NCBI RefSeq assembly: GCF_029978005.1
Contig: NZ_JARKOZ010000084.1
Span: 1-64,000 of the forward strand
Origin: Solidesulfovibrio sp.
GTDB lineage: Bacteria; Desulfobacterota; Desulfovibrionia; Desulfovibrionales; Desulfovibrionaceae
Direction of reading: 5' to 3'
Length of the DNA: 64,000 nucleotides
Part shown: piece after piece, positions 52,479-64,000 of the stretch
How the letters are laid out: each line of letters opens with the position of its first letter
How positions within the stretch are numbered: position 1 is the stretch's first letter
Position numbers and translations under genes: made by a program
The notes under the pieces: model-generated
What the model was told of the DNA's origin: nothing
The model's database searches: none
Seen by the model: only the letters and a program-made list of their open reading frames with translations

Positions 52479-52563
52479 GCGAGAGTGGCGGAACTGGGAG
52501 ACGCACCAGACTTAGGATCTGGCGCCGCAAGGCATGGGGGTTCGAGCCCCCCCTCTCGCACCA
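52479..52563 (+). tRNA. tRNA-Leu (anticodon UAG)
   Basis: 85 nt with encoded CCA. The acceptor stem GCGAGAG (52479-52485) pairs with CTCTCGC (52553-52559). The anticodon loop CTTAGGA (52511-52517) gives TAG at 52513-52515, between CCAGA and TCTGG. It has a long variable arm of class II, the T stem GGGGG/CCCCC and loop TTCGAGC. It reads CUA and related Leu codons. Confidence 0.95.
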
Positions 52564-52985
52564 AGCTGATTTCATTCATATTTACAATTCTCACCCTTCA
52601 CAAAAGAAACTTCCGGGACAGAATCTGTCCCGGCCCTGTCCCGGCCTTGTAGCTTCTGCCCTTCCTCTCCAGCCCCTAAGTCACTCATCCCCCCGTCAGG
52701 GTTGCGCGTCCGCCGGAGGTCGCCTCGCGGCCGGGTCGGATAGGCCCCGGGGAAGGCGGGCCGGACCCCTTGCATGGTTTCGCATACGCAAAAAAGGATG
52801 GCTATGTTGCCATCCTTTTTTGCGCCCGCCCGGCATCCGCCGGGTGCTCGCGGCGCGGGCCCCCTCGCCGGGCGCGCGGCGCTTGTGTCACGTCCACGAA
52901 ATACAGGCATCTGTATTCCATGGATGACGTGCTGCAGCGGTCATGGTTTTTCCAAAAATACTATCGTCTTTTCAGGGACGTCACC
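52564..52985. other. Gene-free stretch between tRNA-Leu and the MFS gene
   Basis: No coding region is credible here. It holds a perfect 21-bp dyad (52613-52633, CCGGGACAG AAT CTGTCCCGG), an intrinsic two-way terminator (52790-52821), and a second long hairpin (52890-52932). The hairpin has a core of AATACAG-GCAT-CTGTATT extended by partly paired flanks. Confidence 0.7.
52790..52821. terminator. Bidirectional intrinsic terminator
   Basis: A-rich run plus GGATGGC, loop TATGTT, GCCATCC plus T-run: a 13-bp stem whose A and T ends give a U-tract in both directions. It lies between the rightward thiD/tRNA-Leu unit and the leftward MFS gene. Confidence 0.8.
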
Positions 52986-54158
52986 CTAGCCGTCGACGTC
53001 CGCAGCCGGCTCCGCGCAGGGACGGCGCATGGCCAGCACCGCCAGAAGGGGCACCCCGGCTCCCAGCACCCCCAGCCAACCGAGCATGCCGGCCTTGGAC
53101 TCCCAGTTGCAGGAAATGACCAGCATGGCCACCGCCCCCCAGACGAACAGGGAAAAGGTCATCAGCGCCGCGGCCGCGCCCACGTCCTGCTGGACCAGTT
53201 CCAGGAGCAGGTGATTGCTGATCGGACGGCTCATGCCGTAAAAAACGGTGATGCCGAACATGCAAAGGGCCACGGCCGTGGGGTTGGGGCCGCCGGTCGC
53301 CGCCAGCACCGTGGAGGCCGCCGCCATGCCCGCCAGGGAGCAGCGCAACAGCGCCGTGGCGGTGACGCTGGCGCACAGGCGGGCGCTCAGGAGCGAACCG
53401 GCCATGATGGCGAACCCGTTGAGCCCGAACAGGAAGCCGTAGGCCTGTTCGCTGACGCCGAAACCGTTGATGTAGATCGACGACGAGCCGCCCACGAAGC
53501 CGAAATAGCCAAGCCCCATGAAGGTGAGGGCGAAGTTGAGCATGATGAAGCGGGTGTTGCGGAAAAGCACCCCGTAGCGCTTGATCACCGGCCAGAATCC
53601 GCCGGAGGTGAAACTGTCCAGGGGCTCTTCGAGCCCCAGGCAGCCGAGAAAGACCAACAGCCCCGTCGCTCCCTGACAGACGAAGATGCCCCGCCAGGAC
53701 ATGACGAGCAGCAGCTCGCCGCCGATCATGGGCGCGATCATGGGGCAAAGGGGCATGATGACGCCGATGGAGGCCAGGACCCGCTGCCGCCTGACGCCGC
53801 TGTACAGGTCCTTGGCCAGGGCCAGGGACAGGGCGGCGGCCGCCGCCGCGCCCACGGCCTGGGTTGCCCGACCGGCGATGAGCACCCAGATGGAGTCGGC
53901 CAAGGCGCAGGCGAAGCAACTGGCCACGTACAGGCCAAGCCCCCAGAGCAGTACCGGTCTGCGGCCGATGCGGTCGGACAGGGGGCCGTGCACCAGCAGG
54001 CAGAGGCTGAAGCAGATGAAGAAGGCCACCACGGAGATGTTGGCCTCGGCCAGTGAAATGCCCCACAGGGTTTGCAGGGTCGGGATGGCCGGCAGGTACA
54101 TGTCCGTGGAAAGGGCGGGCAGGCCGCTGAGCAGTCCGAGGAGGATGAGCATTTTCAT
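52986..54158 (-). CDS. MFS drug-resistance transporter, Bcr/CflA-like
   Basis: 390 residues, about 12 membrane helices. It opens MKMLILLGLLSGLPALSTDM, followed by the Bcr/CflA signature YLPAIPTLQ; motif A is HGPLSDRIGRRPVLL. This group exports drugs and small hydrophobic compounds by H+ antiport. The start is the first ATG before the hydrophobic core; the SD is weak. A perfect sigma-54-type promoter match lies 48 bp upstream (54206-54221). It is the most distal transporter of the hpd region. Confidence 0.85.
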   Translation of the reverse strand: MKMLILLGLLSGLPALSTDMYLPAIPTLQTLWGISLAEANISVVAFFICFSLCLLVHGPLSDRIGRRPVLLWGLGLYVASCFACALADSIWVLIAGRATQAVGAAAAAALSLALAKDLYSGVRRQRVLASIGVIMPLCPMIAPMIGGELLLVMSWRGIFVCQGATGLLVFLGCLGLEEPLDSFTSGGFWPVIKRYGVLFRNTRFIMLNFALTFMGLGYFGFVGGSSSIYINGFGVSEQAYGFLFGLNGFAIMAGSLLSARLCASVTATALLRCSLAGMAAASTVLAATGGPNPTAVALCMFGITVFYGMSRPISNHLLLELVQQDVGAAAALMTFSLFVWGAVAMLVISCNWESKAGMLGWLGVLGAGVPLLAVLAMRRPCAEPAADVDG

Positions 54159-54205
54159 AGCGTGGCGTCCGTATGACCATAGTTGGATTGGGATTGTGCT
54201 GTCGA

Positions 54206-54221
54206 AGCAAGTCACATGCCA
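54206..54221 (-). promoter_or_regulatory. Sigma-54 (-24/-12) promoter, perfect consensus
   Basis: On the minus strand TGGCATG-TGAC-TTGCT matches TGGCAYG-N4-TTGCW at every defined position. Transcription would start near 54195, giving a leader of about 37 bases to the MFS start at 54158. Confidence 0.7.
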
Positions 54222-54448
54222 TGCCCGAATCATCGTTGCTGCGGGGGAGGGTGGACGAAAGCGGGCTCTTTTACAGGGATCTCCGGCCAACCGCGTCCCG
54301 CGCAATGAAGCTGTTTTCAGTAACATCCCGTAATTAAAGATGTGTTTTCGGTTGACGAGTTTGTCCCATTGCGCGCCTGCCCTGACCCGCGCGCTGGCGG
54401 GTGCGAAGCCGTTGCGGCCGTGTTGGCCGATGCCGGCGGCTGGGGCGC

Positions 54449-54483
54449 AAAAAAGGCGGCTTCCCGCAGTGCGAAAAGCCGCC
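54449..54483 (-). terminator. Intrinsic terminator of the OFA transporter gene
   Basis: On the minus strand the stem GGCGGCTT/AAGCCGCC (54476-54483 with 54455-54462) is followed by TTTTTT (54454-54449), about 75 bases after the stop at 54558. It is a textbook rho-independent terminator. Confidence 0.85.
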
Positions 54484-54557
54484 GGCAATGGGCTGGGCCG
54501 GTGGCCGTGACGCGGCATGGCTCCGCGTCGTCCGGCCCAGCCCCGAGGGTGGCGGGA

Positions 54558-55871
54558 CTAGGTGGTCGCCGCCGCGGGCGCGGCCAGGCGACGCTCTTCG
54601 GGGTTGAGGAGCCTCAGCGGCAAGGAGGTGGCGAAGATCAGCGACAGCAGGAAGGACACCAGGGCCACGGCCAGGGAGGCCGTGTAGCTGCCCGTGACGT
54701 CCTTGAGGTAGCCGCCGAGGAAGGAACCGGTGAACGGCCCGGTGCCCATGACGATCAGCGTGGCCAGGCCCCAGATCTTGCCGAGGGTCTTGCGGCCGTA
54801 GAGCGAGCCGCTGTAGCCGACGACGCCGCCCGGCACGATGGCCCAGTAGACGGCGAAGAGCACGCAGGACACCACGCCGATCCACAGGGACTGGCGCTGG
54901 AGGAAGAGCAGGACGCAGGCGACGATGCCGATGGAGGGGCCGAGCTGGAGCATGCGCTTGCGGCCCAGCGGTTCGTAGCCCGTGACCTTGACGGTATAGT
55001 CGGCCACGATGCCCATGATGGGCATGCTGAAGATGCCGACCACGCCGATGACCATGTACATGTACGAAGCCGTGCTGATGTCCATGCCGAGGTCCACGCG
55101 CCAGTAGCTGACCACCTGCGTCCAGACCAGGAACTCGGCCAGCACGCTGAACACGAAGGTGAGGATCGCGCCCCAGATGGGGTAGGAGCTGAAGGCCTGG
55201 CCGATGGTCCACTCGTATTCCTTGGCCGGAGCCGCGCCACCCGCCGCGGGCATGGCGCCGTCGGCGTGCAGGCCGTAGGACTCGGGGCCGCGCTTGGCCA
55301 GGAAGAAGGCGATGGCCAGGACGACGAAGGTCGTATAGCCGAGGCCTTCGTAGATGGACCGCCACGAGGTGCCTTCCGAGAGCGCGTTCTTGATGAAGTA
55401 GGTCAGGATGAGCTGGCCCAGCGGGGCGCCGGCGAAGGCGAAGCCCCACATGGTGGCGTAGCTCTTGCCGACGTACCACTTGCGCACGGAGATGGTGGAC
55501 GTCACCCACAACATGCCCGTGGCGATGCCGCCGAACAGGCCGTAGGCCAGGATGTAGGCGGGCATGCTGGTGATTTGGCCGGTCACGTAAAAGCCCAGGG
55601 CTCCCAGGACGGCCGAGATGGCGAACACGGGCTTGGTGCCCCATTTGTCCAGGATCATGCCGCAGAAAAACGCCGATATGGCATAGATCGTCATCATGAT
55701 GGAATAACCGATGGTCGTCTGGGCGTTGGTCCAGCCCATGTCCTTGAGCATCGGGTCCTTCAGTATGGCGAAGGTGGAACGGTATCCGAAAAGCACGAAC
55801 ACGGCCAGAAACGAGGCGGCTACGACCAGGTGGCCGTAGAGTCGCTGTTTCGCTGCGTCTGGGTTGCTCAT
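54558..55871 (-). CDS. OFA-family MFS transporter (oxalate/formate antiporter-like)
   Basis: 437 residues, 12 predicted membrane helices. Family features: GYRSTFAILKDPMLKDMGWT in the first loop, GMILDKWGTKPVF (motif A), and the long central loop after LAKRGPESYGLHADG. OFA proteins carry small carboxylates, including oxalate, formate and aromatic acids in some anaerobes. The start at 55871 has GAGGATC upstream; an ATG 11 codons earlier is open. It has its own terminator and a sigma-54-type promoter at 56151-56166, giving a leader of about 270 bases. Uptake of an arylacetate for HpdB is possible but unproven. Confidence 0.88.
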   Translation of the reverse strand: MSNPDAAKQRLYGHLVVAASFLAVFVLFGYRSTFAILKDPMLKDMGWTNAQTTIGYSIMMTIYAISAFFCGMILDKWGTKPVFAISAVLGALGFYVTGQITSMPAYILAYGLFGGIATGMLWVTSTISVRKWYVGKSYATMWGFAFAGAPLGQLILTYFIKNALSEGTSWRSIYEGLGYTTFVVLAIAFFLAKRGPESYGLHADGAMPAAGGAAPAKEYEWTIGQAFSSYPIWGAILTFVFSVLAEFLVWTQVVSYWRVDLGMDISTASYMYMVIGVVGIFSMPIMGIVADYTVKVTGYEPLGRKRMLQLGPSIGIVACVLLFLQRQSLWIGVVSCVLFAVYWAIVPGGVVGYSGSLYGRKTLGKIWGLATLIVMGTGPFTGSFLGGYLKDVTGSYTASLAVALVSFLLSLIFATSLPLRLLNPEERRLAAPAAATT

Positions 55872-56150
55872 GGAGATCCTCGTTAGGGATGTTGCGTCCG
55901 GCATTGTCAGCCTGACCTGCGTTGTTCCAGAAAATCCACTGCCTCGTGCGCTGCGTCGCCGGGGGAAACGACGCAGTCGGGCGATCGGGCGAGAGCGATA
56001 CCGTTTTTGTTTTCAAGGCCGCCGGCCGGTACGGTCGCGTCGTGGCTTTCGTGAGGCCACGGCCATGATTCATGCGTCCGGGTCCACGGCGGCAGCCGAT
56101 CGGTTGCTTGCGCTGCCTGCCTGAACTCGGTTCCTGTGCAGTGGACGAAG

Positions 56151-56166
56151 AGCAAGGCGCATGCCT
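56151..56166 (-). promoter_or_regulatory. Sigma-54-type promoter for the OFA transporter
   Basis: On the minus strand AGGCATG-CGCC-TTGCT differs from the consensus TGGCAYG-N4-TTGCW only at the first base. An AT-rich tract lies directly upstream, as expected for an IHF-bent sigma-54 promoter. Confidence 0.6.
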
Positions 56167-56728
56167 GGAGATTATTTCGCAAATTATTTTTAATTTTCAG
56201 TATGTTGATTGATTTTGTTCGCTCGGGCCGGTCCATGGGGGCGGCTGGCCGTTCCCGGTCATGCCAAGCTTGGCCCAACCGTATCGGCCTGCCGCCTTGT
56301 TGCGCCGGGCCAGGGCGCGTGCGCGGGAATGGGCGGATTTGGCACTGCTTGGGCGGGGCTTGGCCCAGCCGGCGTTCCAGGGGGCTTCCGGGGCGCGAAA
56401 AAATCGGTGCTGGCGATGAGTTATACCCTGGCCGGCTTGCGGCCGGGCGCGACGGCAAGGAAGGGCGGTTCTGAAGGTGGCGAGGCGAAAGCGGTGGGGG
56501 GCCGGGAGGGCGCTTGCGCCGGCTTTCCCGCATTGCGGGGAGCAAGGACGAACGGGGGCCGGGGAGGGCGCGGCGGCTCGGCGCGCGGCCACGACGGAAG
56601 CGGTTTTGCTGCGCCACGCTTCCCCCTCCGCACCGGATGCGGCTTGTCCGCGCGGCTGCACTGGAGGACTGTCGGTCCCTCTTTGCCGGGATGCCGGGCG
56701 CGGCTGCGGCAAGAGGCCGTGTGCCGTG

Positions 56729-56758
56729 GCCGGGCGCGACGGCGAGGCCGCGCCCGGC
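56729..56758 (-). terminator. Hairpin after the second MFS gene
   Basis: Perfect 10-bp arms GCCGGGCGCG/CGCGCCCGGC around a 10-base loop lie 33 bases beyond the MFS stop at 56791. There is no T-run, so termination is only suggested. Confidence 0.35.
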
Positions 56759-56790
56759 AGGCAAGGACGGGCGCGGGGGCGCGGCCGGGC

Positions 56791-58005
56791 TCAGTCGGCC
56801 CGTTCGCCGGCCGGCCGGGGCCGGTCGAACACGCCTGTTTTCCAGATCTTGTAGAGCATGAGGATCTGCAGCAGCGCGCCCAGGGACAGGGCGGAAAAGC
56901 CCAGGGTGAAGCCGCCGGAGAGCTGGCGCAGGATGCCGAAGACCTCCGGCCCGATGAGGATGCCGAGATTTTCGCCGATGATGATGACGGCCATGGCCAC
57001 GCCGATGCCTTCCGGCCGTTTGGCCAGCATGGGACCCGAGGCGAAGATGATGGTGGGCACGATGCCGGCGATGAGCCCCATGGCCACGAGCACGGCGTAG
57101 AACGTCTCCAGGGACGGGATGGCGAAAAGCGGCCACAGCACGGCCAGGCCCGCCGGCGGCAGCACGAAAAGCAGCCTGCTGCGGCCGAAGCGCTTGAGGA
57201 AAAAGCCGCCGTAGATGTTGCTCAGGATGGAAAAGGGCCAATAGAGGATGGAGGCGTCGGCGGCCTGGAGGAGCGACTGGCCCATGTTCTCGCTCAGATA
57301 GGTCGTGATCCAGGTGACCAGGGAGAAAAAGCCGAAGGTGTAGGCCGCGAACGCGACGGCCGCGAACCAGACCTTGGCGTTGCCCAACTCGTCCAGGATG
57401 GCTTGTCGGCTGGGCAGCGCGGCCTCGGCCAGGCCGCTTTGCCGGTGGGACGGGATGACCAGGGCGTAGGCGGCGATGCCCGGGCACACGAGCAGGAGCA
57501 GGAACAGCCAATAGGCGCTCAGGGAATAGTGATCGAGCAGCCGGGGCGCGGCGAAGAACATGAGCAGGCTGCCGCAGGGGATCCAGGTGGACCAGATGCC
57601 CATGGCCAGGGGCAGCAGGGGCTTGGACACGAATTGCCCGATGGCCGAGGGCGCGGCCACGGCCACCAGGGCGAAGCCCACGCCCTGGATGATCCGGCCG
57701 GCCAGGAAGACCGGGTAGAGGGAGTGGCATGTGGCCAGAAGGATCAGGCCCAGGCCGCAGCAGAGCAGCAAGAGCCCCCACAATCCCACCCGCCTGACGC
57801 CGCAGCGCTGGATGACCAGGCCGCAGGGCGTGGCGAAGACCAGCGCGGCCAGGGCGAACAGGGTCATGAGCATGCCGGCGTTGGCGTAGGAGAGCTGGAA
57901 GCGGTCCTGGAGCACCGGCAGCAGCGGCGTGACCGAGCATTGGACGAAGGAGGCGATGACGCCCACGGCGAAGGTCACCCAGATGATCCACCAATCTTTT
58001 TTCAC
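56791..58005 (-). CDS. MFS transporter (12 TM)
   Basis: 404 residues with 12 predicted helices. It begins at a GTG overlapping the stop of the upstream MFS gene (GTGA), giving a start of MKKDWWIIWVTFAVGVIASF. Motif A-like loop: ATPCGLVIQRCGVRRVGLWG. It is a general MFS_1 protein, closer to organic-anion or cyanate-type carriers than to multidrug pumps, by eye only. It is made with the 14-TM MFS upstream and so is likely to share its regulation. The substrate is unknown. Confidence 0.85.
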   Translation of the reverse strand: MKKDWWIIWVTFAVGVIASFVQCSVTPLLPVLQDRFQLSYANAGMLMTLFALAALVFATPCGLVIQRCGVRRVGLWGLLLLCCGLGLILLATCHSLYPVFLAGRIIQGVGFALVAVAAPSAIGQFVSKPLLPLAMGIWSTWIPCGSLLMFFAAPRLLDHYSLSAYWLFLLLLVCPGIAAYALVIPSHRQSGLAEAALPSRQAILDELGNAKVWFAAVAFAAYTFGFFSLVTWITTYLSENMGQSLLQAADASILYWPFSILSNIYGGFFLKRFGRSRLLFVLPPAGLAVLWPLFAIPSLETFYAVLVAMGLIAGIVPTIIFASGPMLAKRPEGIGVAMAVIIIGENLGILIGPEVFGILRQLSGGFTLGFSALSLGALLQILMLYKIWKTGVFDRPRPAGERAD

Positions 58006-59441
58006 GACGACACCCGGGACGCCTTGGCGGTTGCATGGTGGGAGGAAGAGGAGGACTCGCCGTCGGCCGGCTGGCTCCGGCGCGAGGACGTCACGATGCC
58101 GAGCAGGGAGTACAGGGCCAGGATGCAAAGCCCCAGGCGCATGCAGGCCAGAAAGGCAGGCATGGTCTCCTGGCCGACCGGCCGGCCGGACAGACAAAGG
58201 GACAACAGGACGGTGATGGTGGTCATGCTGAGCACCATGCCCAGGGTGCGCATGGTGCCGACCATGCCCGAGGCCAGGCCGTAGCGTTCCCTGGGCACGC
58301 TGCCCATGATGATCATGGTATTGGGGGTAATGAAGATGCCGTAGCCCGCGCCGATGCAAAGCAGTTCGACCACGAGCAGCGGCAGGGGCATGGCCGCGTC
58401 GAGGGTGGCGGCGGCCGCCACCAGGCCGAGGCAGGTGACGGCCATGCCGCAGGTGGCCAGGGGGACCGGGGAGCGCTTGTCCGCGAGCCGCCCCACGAAC
58501 GGCGATGCCAACATCTGGGTCACGGGCATGCACAGCAGGACCACTCCGGCCATGGTGGGCGAAAGGTTCATGGAATACTGGAGATAGAGGCTCATGAAAA
58601 AGGTCAGGCCGAAGGTGGAGGCGTAGTTGCCCATGGCGGCCAGGCAGCTCAGGGCGAAGGTCCGGTTGTGGACGATCTCGTGCAGGTCGAGCAGGGGCGC
58701 GGCCGTGCGGGACTGGAGGCGGCAGAAGGCCCACAGGATCGCGGCCCCGAGGACCACGGCCAGGAGGCCGGCCAGGCCCTTGTCCGCATGGGAGGCCCCA
58801 CCGGCCAACAGGCTCAGACCCAGGGCGTAGAGCGCCGCGCCCTTCCAGTCCACGGTCCGCCGGCCCTGGCCGGCCGTGGGCGCGACGTGCAGGCCGACCA
58901 GGCACAAGACCGCCCCCGCCAGGCCGAAGGGCACGAACAGCCAGAACAGGGAGCGCCAGCCAAGGCTCGAGGCGACGAACCCGCCGATCAGGGGGCCGCT
59001 GGACAGGCCGCCGTAGATGAAGGCCTGGAGGATGCCGATCTTCTTGCCGCGCCGGTCGGGCGGATAGGCCAAAGAGACCAGGGCCACGCTGCCGGAGAGG
59101 AGGGAGGCGGCGGACAGGCCTTGCAAGGCGCGCACGAGGATGAGCGTCTCGATGTCCGGAGCCAGGCCCAGGACGCCCGTGGTGGCGGAGAAGCAGACGA
59201 AGCCGACGATGTAGATGCGCCGCCAGCCGAAGATGTCGCCCAGGCGGCCGAAGAAGAGCATGGAAACGGCCGTGGCCAGGACGTAGGTCTGCTCGACCAG
59301 GCCGAGCTGCAGGGCCGAGGCGTGGAGGTCCCGGCCGGCCGAGGGCAGGATGACGGCCACGCCGGTGACCATGACCGGAATGAGGTACTGGGCGACGCAG
59401 GCGATGGTCAGCAGGAGCCAGGGACGGGTTTGGCGCGACAC
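58002..59441 (-). CDS. MFS transporter, DHA2/EmrB-like (14 TM)
   Basis: 479 residues, about 14 helices: GVAVILPSAGRDLHASALQL, motif A FFGRLGDIFGWRRIYIVG, motif C-like LSSGPLIGGFVASSLGWR. This is the DHA2 drug:H+ antiporter pattern. The start is a GTG with GGGGGAC upstream. The polar tail (Ser/His-rich, last about 25 residues) overlaps the start of the next MFS gene. It lies 282 bp after hpdA, from which it is separated by hairpins and a weak sigma-54-type site. Export of p-cresol or related phenols is a fair guess. Confidence 0.87.
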   Translation of the reverse strand: MSRQTRPWLLLTIACVAQYLIPVMVTGVAVILPSAGRDLHASALQLGLVEQTYVLATAVSMLFFGRLGDIFGWRRIYIVGFVCFSATTGVLGLAPDIETLILVRALQGLSAASLLSGSVALVSLAYPPDRRGKKIGILQAFIYGGLSSGPLIGGFVASSLGWRSLFWLFVPFGLAGAVLCLVGLHVAPTAGQGRRTVDWKGAALYALGLSLLAGGASHADKGLAGLLAVVLGAAILWAFCRLQSRTAAPLLDLHEIVHNRTFALSCLAAMGNYASTFGLTFFMSLYLQYSMNLSPTMAGVVLLCMPVTQMLASPFVGRLADKRSPVPLATCGMAVTCLGLVAAAATLDAAMPLPLLVVELLCIGAGYGIFITPNTMIIMGSVPRERYGLASGMVGTMRTLGMVLSMTTITVLLSLCLSGRPVGQETMPAFLACMRLGLCILALYSLLGIVTSSRRSQPADGESSSSSHHATAKASRVSS

Positions 59442-59546
59442 GGTGTCCCCCTTGTGTTCGCATCGTGGGCAATGGGCCGCGAGCCGGGCCGGCGTCCGGA
59501 CGCGCCGGCCCGGCGGCGGCCGGAGCGGAAGCGAGCGATTTCGAAA

Positions 59547-59562
59547 AGCAAGGAACGTTCCT
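59547..59562 (-). promoter_or_regulatory. Possible sigma-54-type promoter for the MFS pair
   Basis: On the minus strand AGGAACG-TTCC-TTGCT keeps GG and GC at the right 10-base spacing and the TTGCT box, with two mismatches. It is weaker than the sites at 54206 and 56151. Confidence 0.4.
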
Positions 59563-59622
59563 GCCGGGGCGCGGGGGCGCGATTTCGGCGCAAGACCCCG
59601 GAGCGCGGAGGGGAGAGCGACG

Positions 59623-59648
59623 CGCCCCGTCCGGTCCCGGACGGGGCG
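59623..59648. promoter_or_regulatory. Strong hairpin between hpdA and the MFS pair
   Basis: Perfect 11-bp arms CGCCCCGTCCG/CGGACGGGGCG with a four-base loop lie about 75 bases after the hpdA stop. There is no T-run. It may end or protect the hpd transcript. Confidence 0.5.
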
Positions 59649-59651
59649 TCT

Positions 59652-59697
59652 GTCACGCGGCGTGACGGTCCTGTCCCTGCGCGTGACGGCGTCACGC
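59652..59697. promoter_or_regulatory. Pair of dyads with the half-site GTCACGC
   Basis: GTCACGC-G-GCGTGAC (59652-59666) is a perfect 15-bp palindrome. GCGTGAC-GGC-GTCACGC (59681-59697) repeats the same half-sites in reverse order. They lie 90-150 bp upstream of the possible sigma-54 promoter, where activator-binding sites usually sit. They could instead be RNA hairpins at the end of the hpdA transcript. Confidence 0.5.
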
Positions 59698-59723
59698 CGG
59701 CGCGTCGCGTCGCTCCCACGGCT

Positions 59724-60665
59724 TCAGGCCAGTTCCTCGTCCACGTAGCAGGCCACGCCGTGATCCAGGAACAGGTCCTGGATGGCCCGCATCCTGTCCT
59801 TGGGCGTGGGTTCGAACTCCTTGTAGGGGTAGCTGCGGCCGAGTTGGCTCCACTTCGTGTCGCCCAGGCGGTGAAAGGGCAGGATGTTGACTTCGAAGAG
59901 CTTGTTGGCGTTCATGAAGTCGATGACCCGTAGGATGTTTTCTTCGTCGTCGTTGAACCCCTCGATGACGGGGATGCGCAGGACCAGTCGGCCTTTCCAG
60001 CCCGAATTGGCCAGCGTGGCGATGTTGTGCAGGATCAGCTCGTTGCCCACGCCCGTCTTTTCCTTGTGCCGGGCGCTGTCCATGTGCTTGCAGTCGATGA
60101 GGGCGAAGTTGATCAGGTCGAAAATTTCCAGGAAGTCCTTGGTCTTGGTGTGCGCGGTCGTTTCGATGGCCCGGTGCACGGATTGTTCCTTGCAGCGCCG
60201 CAGCAGGCGCACCAGGAAGTCCTTTTGCATAGTGGCCTCGCCGCCGCTGAAGGTGACGCCGCCGCCCTGGGACCAGAACTGGCTGTCGCGCAGGATGGCC
60301 CGCATGACCTCATCGTCGGTCATCCATTTGCCGGAAAGGCGGGCGGCTTCGTAGATGCAGCGATCCACGCAGTCGTGGCTGGGGCATTTGTCGCAAAGGG
60401 CCATGTCGAAATGGAGCTTGCCGTCGCCGTTGGGGCGGATGGCCCCGTAAGGGCAGGCTTTGAGGCAGCGCTTGCAGTTTGTTTTGTCGTATTTGCATTT
60501 GGCCTGGCTGAAAAGAAAGCGTTGCCGCAGTTCGAGGCCCTCGGGATTGGAGCACCACTGACAGCGCAAAGGACAGCCGCTCAGGAAGACCAACGTCCGG
60601 CTGCCCGGACCGTCGTGCACCGAGAAGCTCTGGATGTCGAAAACCAAGCCTTGGCCCTCTTTCAT
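59724..60665 (-). CDS. hpdA: 4-hydroxyphenylacetate decarboxylase activating enzyme
   Basis: 313 residues. Radical-SAM cluster motif SGCPLRCQWCSNPEG (CxxxCxxC); an inserted ferredoxin-like domain with two Cys clusters (CKYDKTNCKRCLKACPYGAI and CDKCPSHDCVDRC); VTFSGGEATMQ for SAM. It makes the glycyl radical on HpdB using SAM and an electron. Two extra [4Fe-4S] clusters are typical of HpdA-type activases. GGGAGGA precedes the ATG. It lies 290 bp after hpdC, with a strong hairpin just before its ribosome site. Confidence 0.93.
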   Translation of the reverse strand: MKEGQGLVFDIQSFSVHDGPGSRTLVFLSGCPLRCQWCSNPEGLELRQRFLFSQAKCKYDKTNCKRCLKACPYGAIRPNGDGKLHFDMALCDKCPSHDCVDRCIYEAARLSGKWMTDDEVMRAILRDSQFWSQGGGVTFSGGEATMQKDFLVRLLRRCKEQSVHRAIETTAHTKTKDFLEIFDLINFALIDCKHMDSARHKEKTGVGNELILHNIATLANSGWKGRLVLRIPVIEGFNDDEENILRVIDFMNANKLFEVNILPFHRLGDTKWSQLGRSYPYKEFEPTPKDRMRAIQDLFLDHGVACYVDEELA

Positions 60666-60690
60666 AACGATCCTCCCGTGACGTTGACAC

Positions 60691-60720
60691 GGACAGGAGG
60701 GCGGTAACGCCCTCCTGTCC
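60691..60720 (-). promoter_or_regulatory. 13-bp hairpin just upstream of hpdA
   Basis: Perfect arms GGACAGGAGGGCG (60691-60703) and CGCCCTCCTGTCC (60708-60720) enclose a four-base loop, 25 bases before the hpdA start. It may block upstream decay or processing, or set the lower amount of activase relative to HpdB/HpdC. Confidence 0.6.
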
Positions 60721-60847
60721 GGAGTTTGCAGAGCCGGTGACGCATGTTCGCGGGGCGCTTACCCCCTCCCGCCCGCACGGGGCGTTCGCTCCTGCGCCAG
60801 CCCGATCGCCGATCGCCGCGCCCTGTTCCCGGGTGGGAACCGCTGGC

Positions 60848-60870
60848 GGAGGGTTTCCCCCGAAACCTCC
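60848..60870 (-). promoter_or_regulatory. Hairpin in the hpdC-hpdA gap
   Basis: GGAGG-G-TTTC and GAAA-CCTCC pair with one bulge. Its sense is unclear; it may be part of the RNA structure in this gap. Confidence 0.35.
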
Positions 60871-60908
60871 CGCCGGGCGCCTCGCCTGTCGAAGGGGGGC
60901 TGCTCCCG

Positions 60909-60940
60909 CGGCGCAGCCCCGCGACCGGGGCTGCGCGGCG
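60909..60940 (-). terminator. Strong hairpin just after hpdC
   Basis: Arms with the core GCGCAGCCCCG/CGGGGCTGCGC and a short loop lie about 16 bases after the hpdC stop. With no T-run it may be a partial terminator or a 3' stabiliser of the hpdBC message. Confidence 0.5.
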
Positions 60941-60955
60941 TCTCCCGTCCGTGGC

Positions 60956-61225
60956 CTAGTTGTTCCAGCCCTGGCAGTTGACCGCGGGCATTTCGCCGTA
61001 GGCCCAGAAGCTCTTGTCCTCGAGCCCCACGCAGTTGCCGAGTCCGTCCTTGGTCCGATCGACGAAGCTCTTGCAGTTCTTGCACTTGGGCAGCTCTTCG
61101 AACTTCGGGCAGCATTCCGAATCGATGGCGATCATCTCGTTGGTCCAGGCGCACAGTCCCTTGGCCGCGTCGACCGGAATGAAGTTCTTGCAGTCGTCGT
61201 GTTTGCTTCCCTTCGTGTTGGACAT
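60956..61225 (-). CDS. hpdC: 4-hydroxyphenylacetate decarboxylase small subunit
   Basis: 89 residues. Ligand pattern of HpdC: H9-x2-C12, C25, C39 for one [4Fe-4S] cluster, and C48-x2-C51, C65, C84 for the other (KHDDCKNF; LPKCKNCKSFV; GLGNCVGLE). This small subunit is found only with the 4-hydroxyphenylacetate decarboxylase type of glycyl-radical enzyme, where it binds HpdB and controls its oligomeric state and activity. The start has AGGAGGCG upstream; it lies 10 bp after hpdB. Usual length about 85 aa. Confidence 0.93.
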   Translation of the reverse strand: MSNTKGSKHDDCKNFIPVDAAKGLCAWTNEMIAIDSECCPKFEELPKCKNCKSFVDRTKDGLGNCVGLEDKSFWAYGEMPAVNCQGWNN

Positions 61226-61235
61226 CTCGCGCCTC

Positions 61236-63971
61236 CTAGATGGATTCGTATTCGGTTCTGGCAATCACTTCGTCCTGGATGTGCTTGCCGATTTCGACCC
61301 AGTACTGGGTAAAGCCCGCCACGCGCACCAGCAGGTCGCGGTGCTGCTCGGGATTGGCCTGGGCCTGGCGCATGACCTTGGAGTCGCAGACGTTGAACTG
61401 GATGTGGTGCGCGCCGCGACGCAGGTAGGCCTTGATCAGGTCGGCCAGGTGACGGGTGCCGTTTTCGCCCTTGATGGCCAGGGGGTGGATCTTCATGTTC
61501 ATCTGCGAGTTCTGCGACCAGGACTGGTCCCAGCAGGTCGCGGACTTGAACAGGGCGTAGGGGCCGTTGCGGTCCGTGCCCGGGTAGGCGGACATGGAGC
61601 CGTCGGCGAAGGTGGTGCCGTAGAGGCGTCCGTCGGGCGTGGCCAGGCAGGCGCGGCCCTGGGTGCCGTGGGTGGAGACCGAGTTCTGGCAGGTGTAGAG
61701 TTCGAGGCCGAACAGGGACTCGAAGGTATGGGCCACCTTGGTGAACCACTTCTCCCAGAGGATCAGGTACTTGTCCGCGGCGATGTCGTCGTTGCCGTAC
61801 TTGGGCGCCTGGAGGCAGTCGCCGTGGATGGCGTCGAATTCGTCGCCGTCGTCCTTCTTCACCTGTTCGGCCAGGGAGAAGCTGTCGATCTCGTCGGCCT
61901 TGTAGAAGCCGAAGTTGGCCAGAATGGCCTTGCGGAAGTCGTCCAGGGTGTACTTCTTGTCCTGGAAGACCAGCTTGTCGAGGGCGACGAAGGCGTTGAC
62001 CATGTTGATGGTGCCGCAGCTCTCGATGTTGTAGGTGCCGTTCCAGCGGTAGCCCATGTCGCCGATGTGATGGCCCTTGTCGAGGCAATCGGGCTTGAAC
62101 AGCGACTGGATGATGCACATGTTGTTCTTGCGCCAGATGTCGTGCTGGATGTTGTTGCACTTGCACAGCACGTCGATGGTCTTGGCGTAGTAGTCCTTGT
62201 AGACTTCCCAGATCTCGTCGAAGCTTTCCAGCTTCTTGCCGTGCGGCTCGAAGACCTGGATGCCCGTCCGGTTGTCGTAGCCGTTGAAAAGCACCATCTC
62301 CAGGATCTTCGGGTTGGAGATGAAGTGGACGCCCACGGCGGCGGGCTGGCTGGCCCCGGCCGGCACTTCGTACTCCTTGCCGCCCAGGTGCAGGACCTTC
62401 CACACGGCCGGGGCGGTTTCCAGGCAGCCGCCGATGGCGTAGGAGCGGGCCTCCTCCAGGGTCATGCCTTCCTTCTGGTAGTGGTTCCAGATGAACTCCG
62501 TGCCCATGCGGAAGCTGAACCAGGCCGGGTAGCCGGTGCCGATCTTGGTGCACTCGGCGCACTTGAGCACGAAGTCCTCGGGAATCTTCTCGTCCCAGAG
62601 GATGGACAGGGTCGGCTGGGGGCAGGGCATGGTCATGCCGGCGTGGATCATCAGGTATTCAAGCCTGTTGGTCGCCGGCTCGCCGGTGCGGGTCAGTCCG
62701 CCCACGGCCAGGTTGTTGAAGGTGTTGCCCGAAAGCACGCCGCCGACCACGCCGAAGGAGGCGAACACGTCGAAGCAGGTGAACTTGACCCGCTGCAGTT
62801 CGAGCAACTCCAGGGCTTCGTCCTCGGTGATGCGCCCGGCCGCGACGTCCTGCTCGAACCACGGCCAGAGCACCTGGCCGAGGCGGCCCGGGGACATGCC
62901 GGACAGGGCGTCCTCGTTGAGGGTGATGGTGTGCATGAACTGGATCATCTGCATGGCTTCGTAGAAGGTGCGGGGCTGCTTGTGGGCGATCCACTCGCAG
63001 CAGGCGCTGATCTTGTCGTAGTCGGCCAACAGCTTCGGGTCGTGGGTGTACTGCTTGAGGCGGCGGGCTTCCTTGGCGTAGTTCTCGATCCAGGTCTGGA
63101 TGCCCTTGATGAGCTCGATGCAGGAGGCGTAGAAGTACAGGCGGTCCATGCCGCTGATGCCGTCGCCGCTGGCGTTGCCGGCCACCTCGGCCTTTTTCTC
63201 CTCGCACATGGCGAGCAGCCCGTCGAAGCCGTACTCCAACGGATAGTAGTAGCTCATGACCTCGCGGCCCTGGGGCAGGGTGTAGCCGGAGTCGAACATG
63301 CAGATCATGGTGCGCATGATCTTTTCCTTGAGGTCGTACTCCGGAACCTCGCGCTCCCAGCGGTTGCCGAGGTCGTCCACGGACTTCTTGTACCAGGCCT
63401 TGGCGATCTTATTGAGCGCCGGCACTTCCTCGGCCCGGATGCCGAACTTGCCGGCGATGGAGACGATCTTGCCGAAGCTCTCGGTGACGTTGCCGCCGCC
63501 CGCGCCCACGCGAGACAGTTCGCCCGAGGACTCGCCGCCGCGCTTGAGGGCCTCCTGGTACATCTCGTCCTCGTGGGCCAGGAAGAAGCCTTCGGACAGC
63601 TGCGGCATGGGGAAGGAACCGCGGTAGTACCGGGCCTTGCAGCACACGATCAGCTCGCCCGGGATGATCAGCGGCGTGGTTTTGGCGAAGGCCACGGCCA
63701 GGGCCTTGGCCCGGCGGTAGACCGGGATCTCGTACTCGTGCTGGGCGTAGGTCCGGTTGTACCAGTAGCCGAACTCCATGCTGACCGAGGACAGGGTGTT
63801 CAGATACAGGTCATAGAGCTTTTCGACGCGGGGATGGGGCTTGAGGTCCTGGAATTCCCGGTCGACGATCTCTTCGGGGGCCTTGCCTCCGTACTGGAAG
63901 TTCATCCCGAGACCCTTTTCCGCCAGGATGTCGCCCAGCTTCTTCTTGCGCTGAAGATCGAGCTCAGTCAT
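61236..63971 (-). CDS. hpdB: 4-hydroxyphenylacetate decarboxylase glycyl-radical subunit
   Basis: 911 residues, a complete pyruvate-formate-lyase-fold enzyme. Active-site Cys C516 with E518 (YAIGGCLETAPAVWK), S357 (NEDALSGMSPGR), H549, E650, and the glycyl radical G886 (LVRVAGFTQYW). These match the clostridial residues C503, E505, S344, H536, E637 and G873 with a constant shift of 13. It decarboxylates 4-hydroxyphenylacetate, a tyrosine breakdown product, to p-cresol. AAGGAAGG precedes the ATG; the promoter is beyond the right edge. Confidence 0.93.
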   Translation of the reverse strand: MTELDLQRKKKLGDILAEKGLGMNFQYGGKAPEEIVDREFQDLKPHPRVEKLYDLYLNTLSSVSMEFGYWYNRTYAQHEYEIPVYRRAKALAVAFAKTTPLIIPGELIVCCKARYYRGSFPMPQLSEGFFLAHEDEMYQEALKRGGESSGELSRVGAGGGNVTESFGKIVSIAGKFGIRAEEVPALNKIAKAWYKKSVDDLGNRWEREVPEYDLKEKIMRTMICMFDSGYTLPQGREVMSYYYPLEYGFDGLLAMCEEKKAEVAGNASGDGISGMDRLYFYASCIELIKGIQTWIENYAKEARRLKQYTHDPKLLADYDKISACCEWIAHKQPRTFYEAMQMIQFMHTITLNEDALSGMSPGRLGQVLWPWFEQDVAAGRITEDEALELLELQRVKFTCFDVFASFGVVGGVLSGNTFNNLAVGGLTRTGEPATNRLEYLMIHAGMTMPCPQPTLSILWDEKIPEDFVLKCAECTKIGTGYPAWFSFRMGTEFIWNHYQKEGMTLEEARSYAIGGCLETAPAVWKVLHLGGKEYEVPAGASQPAAVGVHFISNPKILEMVLFNGYDNRTGIQVFEPHGKKLESFDEIWEVYKDYYAKTIDVLCKCNNIQHDIWRKNNMCIIQSLFKPDCLDKGHHIGDMGYRWNGTYNIESCGTINMVNAFVALDKLVFQDKKYTLDDFRKAILANFGFYKADEIDSFSLAEQVKKDDGDEFDAIHGDCLQAPKYGNDDIAADKYLILWEKWFTKVAHTFESLFGLELYTCQNSVSTHGTQGRACLATPDGRLYGTTFADGSMSAYPGTDRNGPYALFKSATCWDQSWSQNSQMNMKIHPLAIKGENGTRHLADLIKAYLRRGAHHIQFNVCDSKVMRQAQANPEQHRDLLVRVAGFTQYWVEIGKHIQDEVIARTEYESI

Positions 63972-64000
63972 GCAGCACCTTCCTTGCAGGTTATGGTGGA

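What the first reader, a model, noticed from the sequence alone, without database searches (positions are those of the whole stretch)
59724..63971. Complete hpdB-hpdC-hpdA (p-cresol-forming) cluster in an apparent sulfate reducer
The three genes occur in the clostridial order: glycyl-radical subunit, small Fe-S subunit and activase. This enzyme type is best known from Clostridioides difficile and relatives. The small subunit separates it from phenylacetate and indoleacetate decarboxylases. The surrounding genes look like Desulfovibrionaceae, so this would place p-cresol formation in a different group and suggests lateral transfer or an old, overlooked distribution.
Basis: partly seen in the sequence, partly recalled or inferred. 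Interest (0 to 1): 0.75.

Follow-up and report, generated by a model that had tools for sequence, protein, structure and literature searches.

The report
p-Cresol-forming enzyme genes in Desulfovibrionaceae bacterium
A bacterium of the sulfate-reducing Desulfovibrionaceae carries a complete, intact-looking gene set for 4-hydroxyphenylacetate decarboxylase, the enzyme that makes p-cresol in some gut clostridia, probably acquired sideways; the same enzyme family turns out to be spread over many more phyla than usually stated.

Summary
hpdB (61236-63971), hpdC (60956-61225) and hpdA (59724-60665), minus strand, each pass the NCBIfam equivalog cut-off for 4-hydroxyphenylacetate decarboxylase (HPAD). 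HpdB keeps the catalytic residues and HpdC both Fe4S4 ligand quartets. In trees HpdB lies inside HPAD. The host is Desulfovibrionaceae with dsrA. HpdC is in 6 of 288 family genomes and none of 13 congeners; the locus follows a tRNA-Leu in DNA absent from 10 congeners read, so lateral gain is likely. It is no first outside clostridia: HPAD with HpdC occurs in 14 named phyla. Beyond the finding: the genome has a second HPAD whose HpdC lost the first cluster's ligands; the MFS carrier at 54558-55904 belongs to a family directly behind hpdC in 40 of 84 other loci, a candidate for the unidentified HPA transporter; and HpdB has an unusual Asn763 that probably lines the pocket. p-Cresol formation is untested. 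New member of a known kind, moderately interesting.

The parts
61236..63971 (-). hpdB, glycyl-radical (catalytic) subunit of 4-hydroxyphenylacetate decarboxylase, 911 aa; C516, E518, H549, E650, radical G886; unusual N763
60956..61225 (-). hpdC, small Fe-S subunit, 89 aa; ligand sets H9 C12 C25 C39 and C48 C51 C65 C84
59724..60665 (-). hpdA, radical-SAM activase, 313 aa, CxxxCxxC plus Cys-rich ferredoxin-like insert
54558..55904 (-). MFS carrier, weakly like lactate and oxalate/formate carriers (below their cut-offs); candidate arylacetate (HPA) transporter of the system, separated from hpdA by two other MFS genes
58002..59441 (-). MFS gene, EmrB-like (176 bits, cut-off 230), between hpdA and the candidate HPA carrier; no match at the 86 other loci searched; link to the system unknown
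56791..58035 (-). MFS gene (start uncertain, about 58011); matches at 2 of the 86 other loci (L051, L053)
52479..52563 (+). tRNA-Leu; left border of the stretch that the 10 congeners read lack

Best explanation
[quoted passage not shown] HpdA reductively cleaves SAM and puts a radical on G886 of HpdB; the radical passes to C516; with E518 and the phenol-side pair H549/E650 the enzyme decarboxylates 4-hydroxyphenylacetate (HPA) to p-cresol and CO2. HpdC binds two Fe4S4 clusters and supports the complex. HPA is probably brought in by the MFS carrier at 54558-55904; decarboxylation uses up a cytoplasmic proton, so import plus decarboxylation could raise internal pH or help the proton-motive force, while p-cresol inhibits competitors. 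Shown here: gene identity, conserved residues, tree position, gene linkage. Inferred from the characterised clostridial enzymes: the chemistry. Inferred only: transport, regulation, physiological use.
For: All three genes pass equivalog cut-offs. Of the nine active-site residues that PMC4979209 names for C. scatologenes HPAD (passage) eight are kept (R223, S344, G345, F405, C503, E505, H536, E637), as are L400 and G873; S344, H536 and E637 are kept in 87 of 87 HPADs aligned, while the two indoleacetate decarboxylases have Leu at 637. All eight HpdC ligand positions kept. HpdB sits in a six-sequence clade with Bacillota at 100/98, nested among lineages that hold the C. scatologenes, Tannerella and Tractidigestivibacter HPADs. 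Carrier family: in this genome two strong matches, both at HPAD loci, the third 22.6 bits; directly behind hpdC in 40 of 84 other loci with hpdC, 0 of 12 control loci. dsrA over cut-off; indolepyruvate:ferredoxin oxidoreductase alpha over cut-off, 678 against 651, so aryl-pyruvate oxidation towards arylacetates is plausible.
Against: No activity data. At position 750 the window HpdB and its one close relative (L016) have Asn, against Ile in 77 and Met in 8 of 85 other HPADs. The ninth named residue, Gly532, is Ala here; Ser in 82, Ala in 4 and Gly in 1 of 87. HpdB scores lower on the HPAD model (1466) than the second HPAD of the same genome (1555). No sigma-54 site above chance upstream. The hpdC-hpdA gap is 290 bases, so one transcript is not certain. 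Four other members of its clade have changed residues at 214 and 754. 44 of 84 other loci lack the carrier behind hpdC, and G147 has a second strong match to it on a contig other than its HPAD locus.
Confidence: 0.77

Rival explanations
1. A para-hydroxyarylacetate decarboxylase retuned to a ring-substituted substrate, such as 3,4-dihydroxyphenylacetate (giving 4-methylcatechol) or homovanillate (giving creosol), with the genome's second HPAD (contig C30) handling HPA itself.
For: N763 replaces a position that is otherwise Ile or Met. By a hand alignment it lies two residues before the position matching Thr645 of HypD, a substrate-contacting residue of strand beta-8 (PMC7077986, passages), so its side chain should face the pocket. 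Positions 214 and 754 vary in 4 of 87 HPADs, all four in the six-member clade that holds the window enzyme. Two HPADs of different lineage in one genome invite a division of labour.
Against: All phenol-side and catalytic residues are kept; Asn at one position may be neutral; no coordinates could be measured here.
Confidence: 0.15
2. Assembly or binning artefact: the hpd stretch belongs to another organism in the sample.
For: Genome in 224 contigs with 4.14% estimated contamination; the locus lies at a contig end; two dsrA genes over cut-off; hpdC and hpdA are a little lower in GC (0.59, 0.61) than the left neighbours (0.63-0.70).
Against: The same contig carries thiD and tRNA-Leu; this 971-base piece has one match in the genome and full-length matches in 10 of 13 congeners. 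hpdB has GC 0.63 and GC3 0.94, near the left neighbours (GC3 0.88-0.92) and unlike its 84% identical relative (GC3 0.67). Four of 13 congeners also have two dsrA genes over cut-off, one of them a one-contig genome (G269).
Confidence: 0.05
3. A different glycyl-radical decarboxylase (indoleacetate or phenylacetate type) or another GRE class.
For: Same superfamily; weaker matches to indoleacetate decarboxylase and hydroxyproline dehydratase models.
Against: 658 bits against a cut-off of 1100 for indoleacetate decarboxylase; tree position; HpdC present; Glu at 637 where indoleacetate decarboxylase has Leu. Phenylacetate decarboxylase PhdB was not in the trees.
Confidence: 0.02

Closest known systems
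4-hydroxyphenylacetate decarboxylase HpdBCA of Clostridium scatologenes (PDB 2y8n/2yaj) and Clostridioides difficile
   Same: gene order B-C-A (the clostridial order is from PMC4979209, passage); subunits and activase over curated cut-offs; catalytic residues; two Fe4S4 ligand sets in HpdC
   Different: host phylum; Asn instead of Ile at C. scatologenes position 750; four MFS genes follow; no PFOR-type or kinase gene among the seven proteins searched around the locus, unlike the C. scatologenes cluster (PMC13285125, section read)
HPAD of uncultured Desulfovibrionaceae bacterium isolate E02__bin324 (CALUUT010000024.1; L016 = part of L022)
   Same: 84% identical HpdB, 62% HpdC, 65% HpdA, order B-C-A, Asn at 750, two-cluster HpdC, divergent PAS-type regulator gene
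   Different: GC 0.54 instead of 0.63 in hpdB; other neighbours
HPAD of Emergencia timonensis and Bacilliculturomica massiliensis (L101, L071)
   Same: in the same six-sequence clade (100/98), two-cluster HpdC, order B-C-A
   Different: 56-58% identity; Phe214 replaced; 750 is Ile
Second HPAD of the same genome (G000 contig C30, L015)
   Same: passes the same HpdB and HpdC models; catalytic residues kept
   Different: 60% identity; order B-C-MFS-A; HpdC has Y/T/D/P in place of the first cluster's H/C/C/C

Membership tests
4-hydroxyphenylacetate decarboxylase (HpdBCA) | large subunit over the NF033715 equivalog cut-off | tested here: met
   1466 bits against 1150
4-hydroxyphenylacetate decarboxylase (HpdBCA) | Cys and Glu of the Cys loop, radical Gly, phenol-side Glu and His | tested here: met
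   C516, E518, G886, E650, H549
4-hydroxyphenylacetate decarboxylase (HpdBCA) | small subunit with two Fe4S4 ligand sets next to hpdB | tested here: met
   NF033716 106 bits against 50; both quartets present. The ligand positions are recalled, not from a call
4-hydroxyphenylacetate decarboxylase (HpdBCA) | radical-SAM activase with ferredoxin-like insert | tested here: met
   NF033717 450 bits against 420; Radical_SAM over its Pfam cut-off; CPLRCQWC and Cys-rich insert seen in the sequence; the Pfam ferredoxin models over that insert stay below their cut-offs
4-hydroxyphenylacetate decarboxylase (HpdBCA) | groups with characterised HPAD, not with IAD | tested here: met
   C. scatologenes HPAD and Tractidigestivibacter HPAD and IAD included, C. 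difficile HPAD and PhdB not
4-hydroxyphenylacetate decarboxylase (HpdBCA) | other pocket residues as in the family | tested here: inconclusive
   214, 223, 344, 345, 400, 405, 754 kept; 750 Ile to Asn; 531/532 Ala-Ala, as also in L061 and L077
4-hydroxyphenylacetate decarboxylase (HpdBCA) | forms p-cresol from HPA | not testable with these tools
   needs enzyme assay or culture
indoleacetate decarboxylase | over the NF033718 cut-off, no small subunit, no Glu at 637 | tested here: not met
   658 bits against 1100; HpdC present; Glu present

The most novel reading that the evidence does not exclude
One Desulfovibrionaceae genome carries two HPAD systems of separate origin that have split their work: the window enzyme, with an Asn in its pocket, decarboxylates a ring-substituted 4-hydroxyphenylacetate (such as the dihydroxy or methoxy form), while the C30 enzyme makes p-cresol with a small subunit that has naturally lost one of its two Fe4S4 clusters; both are fed by one family of MFS carriers, the missing HPA transporter.
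Probability: 0.13. Interest if true: 0.68.

Novelty: new member of a known kind. Interest (0 to 1): 0.5.

Why it matters
p-Cresol is bacteriostatic and, in people, a precursor of a uremic toxin, usually credited to clostridia; a 2017 in silico survey placed the pathway in Firmicutes and not in Proteobacteria, Fusobacteria or Bacteroidetes (PMC5682003, passages). The gene family is far wider. Two acknowledged gaps become testable: the HPA transporter, called 'currently unidentified' for C. difficile (PMC7925072, passages), for which a linked carrier family is offered; and the small subunit, whose function is called unknown or unclear (PMC12358834, passages; PMC11194802, passages), for which 20 of 86 natural small subunits without the first ligand set, one of them in this same genome, give a ready comparison.

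Tried and rejected
Sigma-54 promoter upstream of hpdB: its best score was reached in 455 of 500 mononucleotide shuffles, so no evidence. Sigma-70 and terminator scans of 52500-64000: 3 promoter-like (1.2 expected) and 10 terminator-like (7.4 expected), nothing to build on. PAS/AAA regulators (called sigma-54-type from recall of their motifs; no family search was run on them) near HPAD: each of two queries hit 18 of 87 loci, but also 2 of 12 control loci, so only the fixed divergent place in 5 of 5 type-II Desulfovibrionaceae loci counts. Viral carriage: the viral-contig scan gave no relative. PaaK, DUF4125 and AMP-ligase neighbours: 2, 9 and 3 of 87 loci, not pursued. A DNA search with the C30 flank in the genus returned mostly repeated gene families and did not settle where C30 lies. 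Phylum sample of 395 genomes: only G000 had HpdC, although records named Desulfobacterium and Desulfobacteraceae carry it (L054, L062), so that sample may understate.

Rows dropped and limits: L022 was left out because L016 is part of it letter for letter; L001-L003 were left out of the trees; L017 was left out of the pocket counts as below the HPAD cut-off; L072 and L081 have no HpdC match in the DNA held (L072 ends 26 bases after hpdB). Only the best 80 of 174 genome contigs relatives were returned, so the phylum count is a lower bound for this search. Of the 84 other loci in the carrier count 78 have 1400 bases or more behind hpdC. Three congeners (G261, G262, G269) were not read beyond the tRNA. 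The crystal-structure paper is not held and I did not try the other early HPAD papers; whether the one-cluster HpdC of Tannerella is already in print I could not check, and one search for it found nothing.
Full report
WHAT IS THERE. Searches confirm three minus-strand genes at the stated place: hpdB 61236-63971 (911 aa), hpdC 60956-61225 (89 aa) and hpdA 59724-60665 (313 aa). They pass the NCBIfam equivalog cut-offs for the large subunit (1466 against 1150 bits), small subunit (106 against 50) and activase (450 against 420) of 4-hydroxyphenylacetate decarboxylase (HPAD). The hpdB-hpdC gap is 10 bases, the hpdC-hpdA gap 290. HpdB and HpdC match the two chains of the solved C. scatologenes enzyme (2y8n). 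HpdA has the radical-SAM motif and a Cys-rich insert.

CATALYTIC RESIDUES. On an alignment of 93 sequences, 87 of them HPADs, the window keeps F214, R223, S344, G345, L400, F405, C503, E505, H536, E637, T754 and G873 (C. scatologenes numbering). PMC4979209 names nine active-site residues (passage): eight are kept and Gly532 is Ala. PMC6181972 adds the roles of the two Glu residues and of Leu400 (passages). Positions 214, 750 and 754 I chose from recall. The two indoleacetate decarboxylases have Leu at 637. In the window's HpdC the ligands are H9, C12, C25, C39 and C48, C51, C65, C84, matched to C. scatologenes positions 3, 6, 19, 36 and 45, 48, 62, 80; that these are the cluster ligands is recalled and fits the conservation.

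AN UNUSUAL POCKET RESIDUE. Of 85 other HPADs 77 have Ile and 8 Met at position 750; the window and its relative L016 have Asn (N763). At 532 the 87 HPADs have Ser 82 times, Ala 4 times (window, L016, L061, L077) and Gly once, in C. scatologenes. That 750 lines the pocket is inference: counting back from a shared downstream motif, Thr645 of HypD, which hydrogen-bonds its substrate from strand beta-8 (PMC7077986, passages), matches position 752, and 750 is two residues before it on the same face of the strand. I aligned HypD by hand from the primer letters in that paper; one search printed other GREs. Val709 of benzylsuccinate synthase, which from recall I believe matches 750, is described as a hydrophobic residue near the active cysteine (PMC11194802, passage).

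TREES. A 90-row tree and a 39-row tree with a mixture model both put the window HpdB inside HPAD, with two indoleacetate decarboxylases as outgroup. The window and L016 pair at full support and lie in a six-sequence clade (97, 100/98) with Bacilliculturomica, Emergencia, Clostridiales VE202-21 and a Lachnospiraceae bin. The C. scatologenes enzyme is itself on a long branch, so its own place is unsure. C. difficile HPAD and PhdB were not included.

HOST AND SPREAD. The genome (G000, 4.8 Mb, 224 contigs, 96.3% complete, 4.14% contaminated) shares its family with G016, whose contig is in the public record as an uncultured Desulfovibrionaceae bacterium. Two dsrA genes are over the cut-off, as in 4 of 13 congeners; that it respires sulfate is inferred from this and the family. 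HpdC is in 6 of 288 genomes of the family and 1 of 14 of the genus. In a sample of 395 genomes of the phylum only G000 has it.

LATERAL GAIN. A 971-base piece with thiD and tRNA-Leu has matches in 14 of 14 genomes of the genus, in one piece in 11. In 10 of 13 congeners 12.8-18.9 kb beyond the tRNA were read: none of the four MFS or three hpd genes is there. What follows the tRNA varies, though some congeners share it with each other; the window's first 9 kb matched none of the ten. I noticed no integrase among the frames between tRNA and hpdB, without a dedicated search. GC3 of hpdB (0.94) fits its neighbours (0.88-0.92), that of L016's hpdB is 0.67, and the two genes are 80% identical as DNA, so the gain is not recent or the genes have adapted. 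The second HPAD groups with a Telmatospirillum (Rhodospirillaceae) sequence and one other Desulfovibrionaceae sequence, apart from three more Desulfovibrionaceae ones, another sign of transfer.

THE FAMILY IS WIDE. The genome-contig scan found 174 relatives; the best 80 were kept. They fall into 14 named phyla (one of them archaeal) plus five titles that the taxonomy did not place; many are metagenome bins. Of 87 loci, the window's own counted, 85 have a small subunit in the DNA held. So an HPAD outside clostridia is no surprise by itself, while the sparse presence in this family stands.

A SECOND HPAD WITH HALF A SMALL SUBUNIT. Contig C30 of the same genome holds hpdB-hpdC-MFS-hpdA with a divergent PAS/AAA regulator. 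Its HpdB passes the model (1555 bits); its HpdC has Y, T, D, P where the first cluster's ligands should be. Of 86 small subunits compared (window, C. scatologenes, 84 others) 66 keep all four first-set positions as His or Cys and 20 do not; the second set is Cys in all 86; all 20 have Asp in place of the third ligand. The 20 lie in at least two places of the tree, three Atopobiaceae (which keep one of the four Cys) and a large mixed clade; the tree needs four changes at the fewest, and starred branches force three. Tannerella forsythia, already cited as an HPAD bearer, is one of the 20. The small subunit's function is called unknown or unclear in PMC12358834 and PMC11194802 (passages), so this is a useful natural experiment.

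A LINKED CARRIER. The MFS gene 54558-55904 matches 41 of 87 HPAD loci, its own included, at E 1e-12. In 40 of 84 other loci with hpdC it stands directly behind hpdC, 19-208 bases on, and in 31 of these the activase lies beyond it; 0 of 12 control loci have it. Six whole genomes were searched: G000 has two strong matches, both at HPAD loci, and a third of 22.6 bits; Tannerella and Thermanaerothrix have one each, at the HPAD locus; G147 has one there and one on another contig; G016 has seven and Tractidigestivibacter three, several beside other glycyl-radical enzymes including indoleacetate decarboxylase (places). So the family goes with such enzymes more widely than HPAD alone. Against it: 44 of 84 loci lack it, among them the whole Bacteroidales-rich clade. 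The C. difficile work postulates an unidentified HPA transporter (PMC7925072, passages).

WHAT IS IN PRINT. In searches I saw no title or abstract start that reports HPAD genes in Desulfovibrionaceae; of the hits I looked into passages of three (PMC5682003, PMC10571392, PMC8397734), which do not report it there. PMC8397734 did place GREs of gut Desulfovibrionaceae in a tree with known HPADs; its result for HPAD was not in the passage seen. Most subscription journals are missing from the library, so this is not proof. PMC13285125 (abstract, one section, passages) gives the upstream pathway in C. scatologenes; this genome has an indolepyruvate oxidoreductase that could supply arylacetyl-CoA.

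VERDICT. A genuine HPAD gene set, laterally gained and sparse in its family: a new member of a known kind. The extra findings (carrier, half-ligand small subunit, N763) are what a specialist could use. Function is predicted, not shown.

Noticed in passing
L015 (G000 contig C30) 4902-10484: Second HPAD operon hpdB-hpdC-MFS-hpdA in the same genome, small subunit without the first Fe4S4 ligand set; same kind in four other Desulfovibrionaceae genomes (L018-L021).
   Followed up: partly
L017 4553-7502 (G016 contig C72): Glycyl-radical enzyme with an HpdC-like small subunit but Gly at 536 and Trp at 637; below the HPAD cut-off (1064 against 1150), sister to all HPADs on a long branch: possible new arylacetate decarboxylase.
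   Followed up: partly
L118 (G016 contig C9): The same Desulfovibrionaceae MAG also has an indoleacetate decarboxylase over its cut-off (1609 against 1100 bits): skatole potential outside the bearers named in PMC6181972.
   Followed up: no
L001, L002, L003 (G000 contigs C37, C28, C176): Three further glycyl-radical enzymes that pass no equivalog cut-off.
   Followed up: no
L061, L077: HPAD with HpdC in Enterobacteriaceae (Citrobacter amalonaticus, Cedecea), grouping with the long-branched C. scatologenes enzyme.
   Followed up: no
window contig C203, 64473 to contig end 64611 (past the window): Start of a divergent PAS-like frame upstream of hpdB, cut off by the contig end; L016 has a full PAS/AAA/HTH-like regulator in the same divergent place.
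   Followed up: partly
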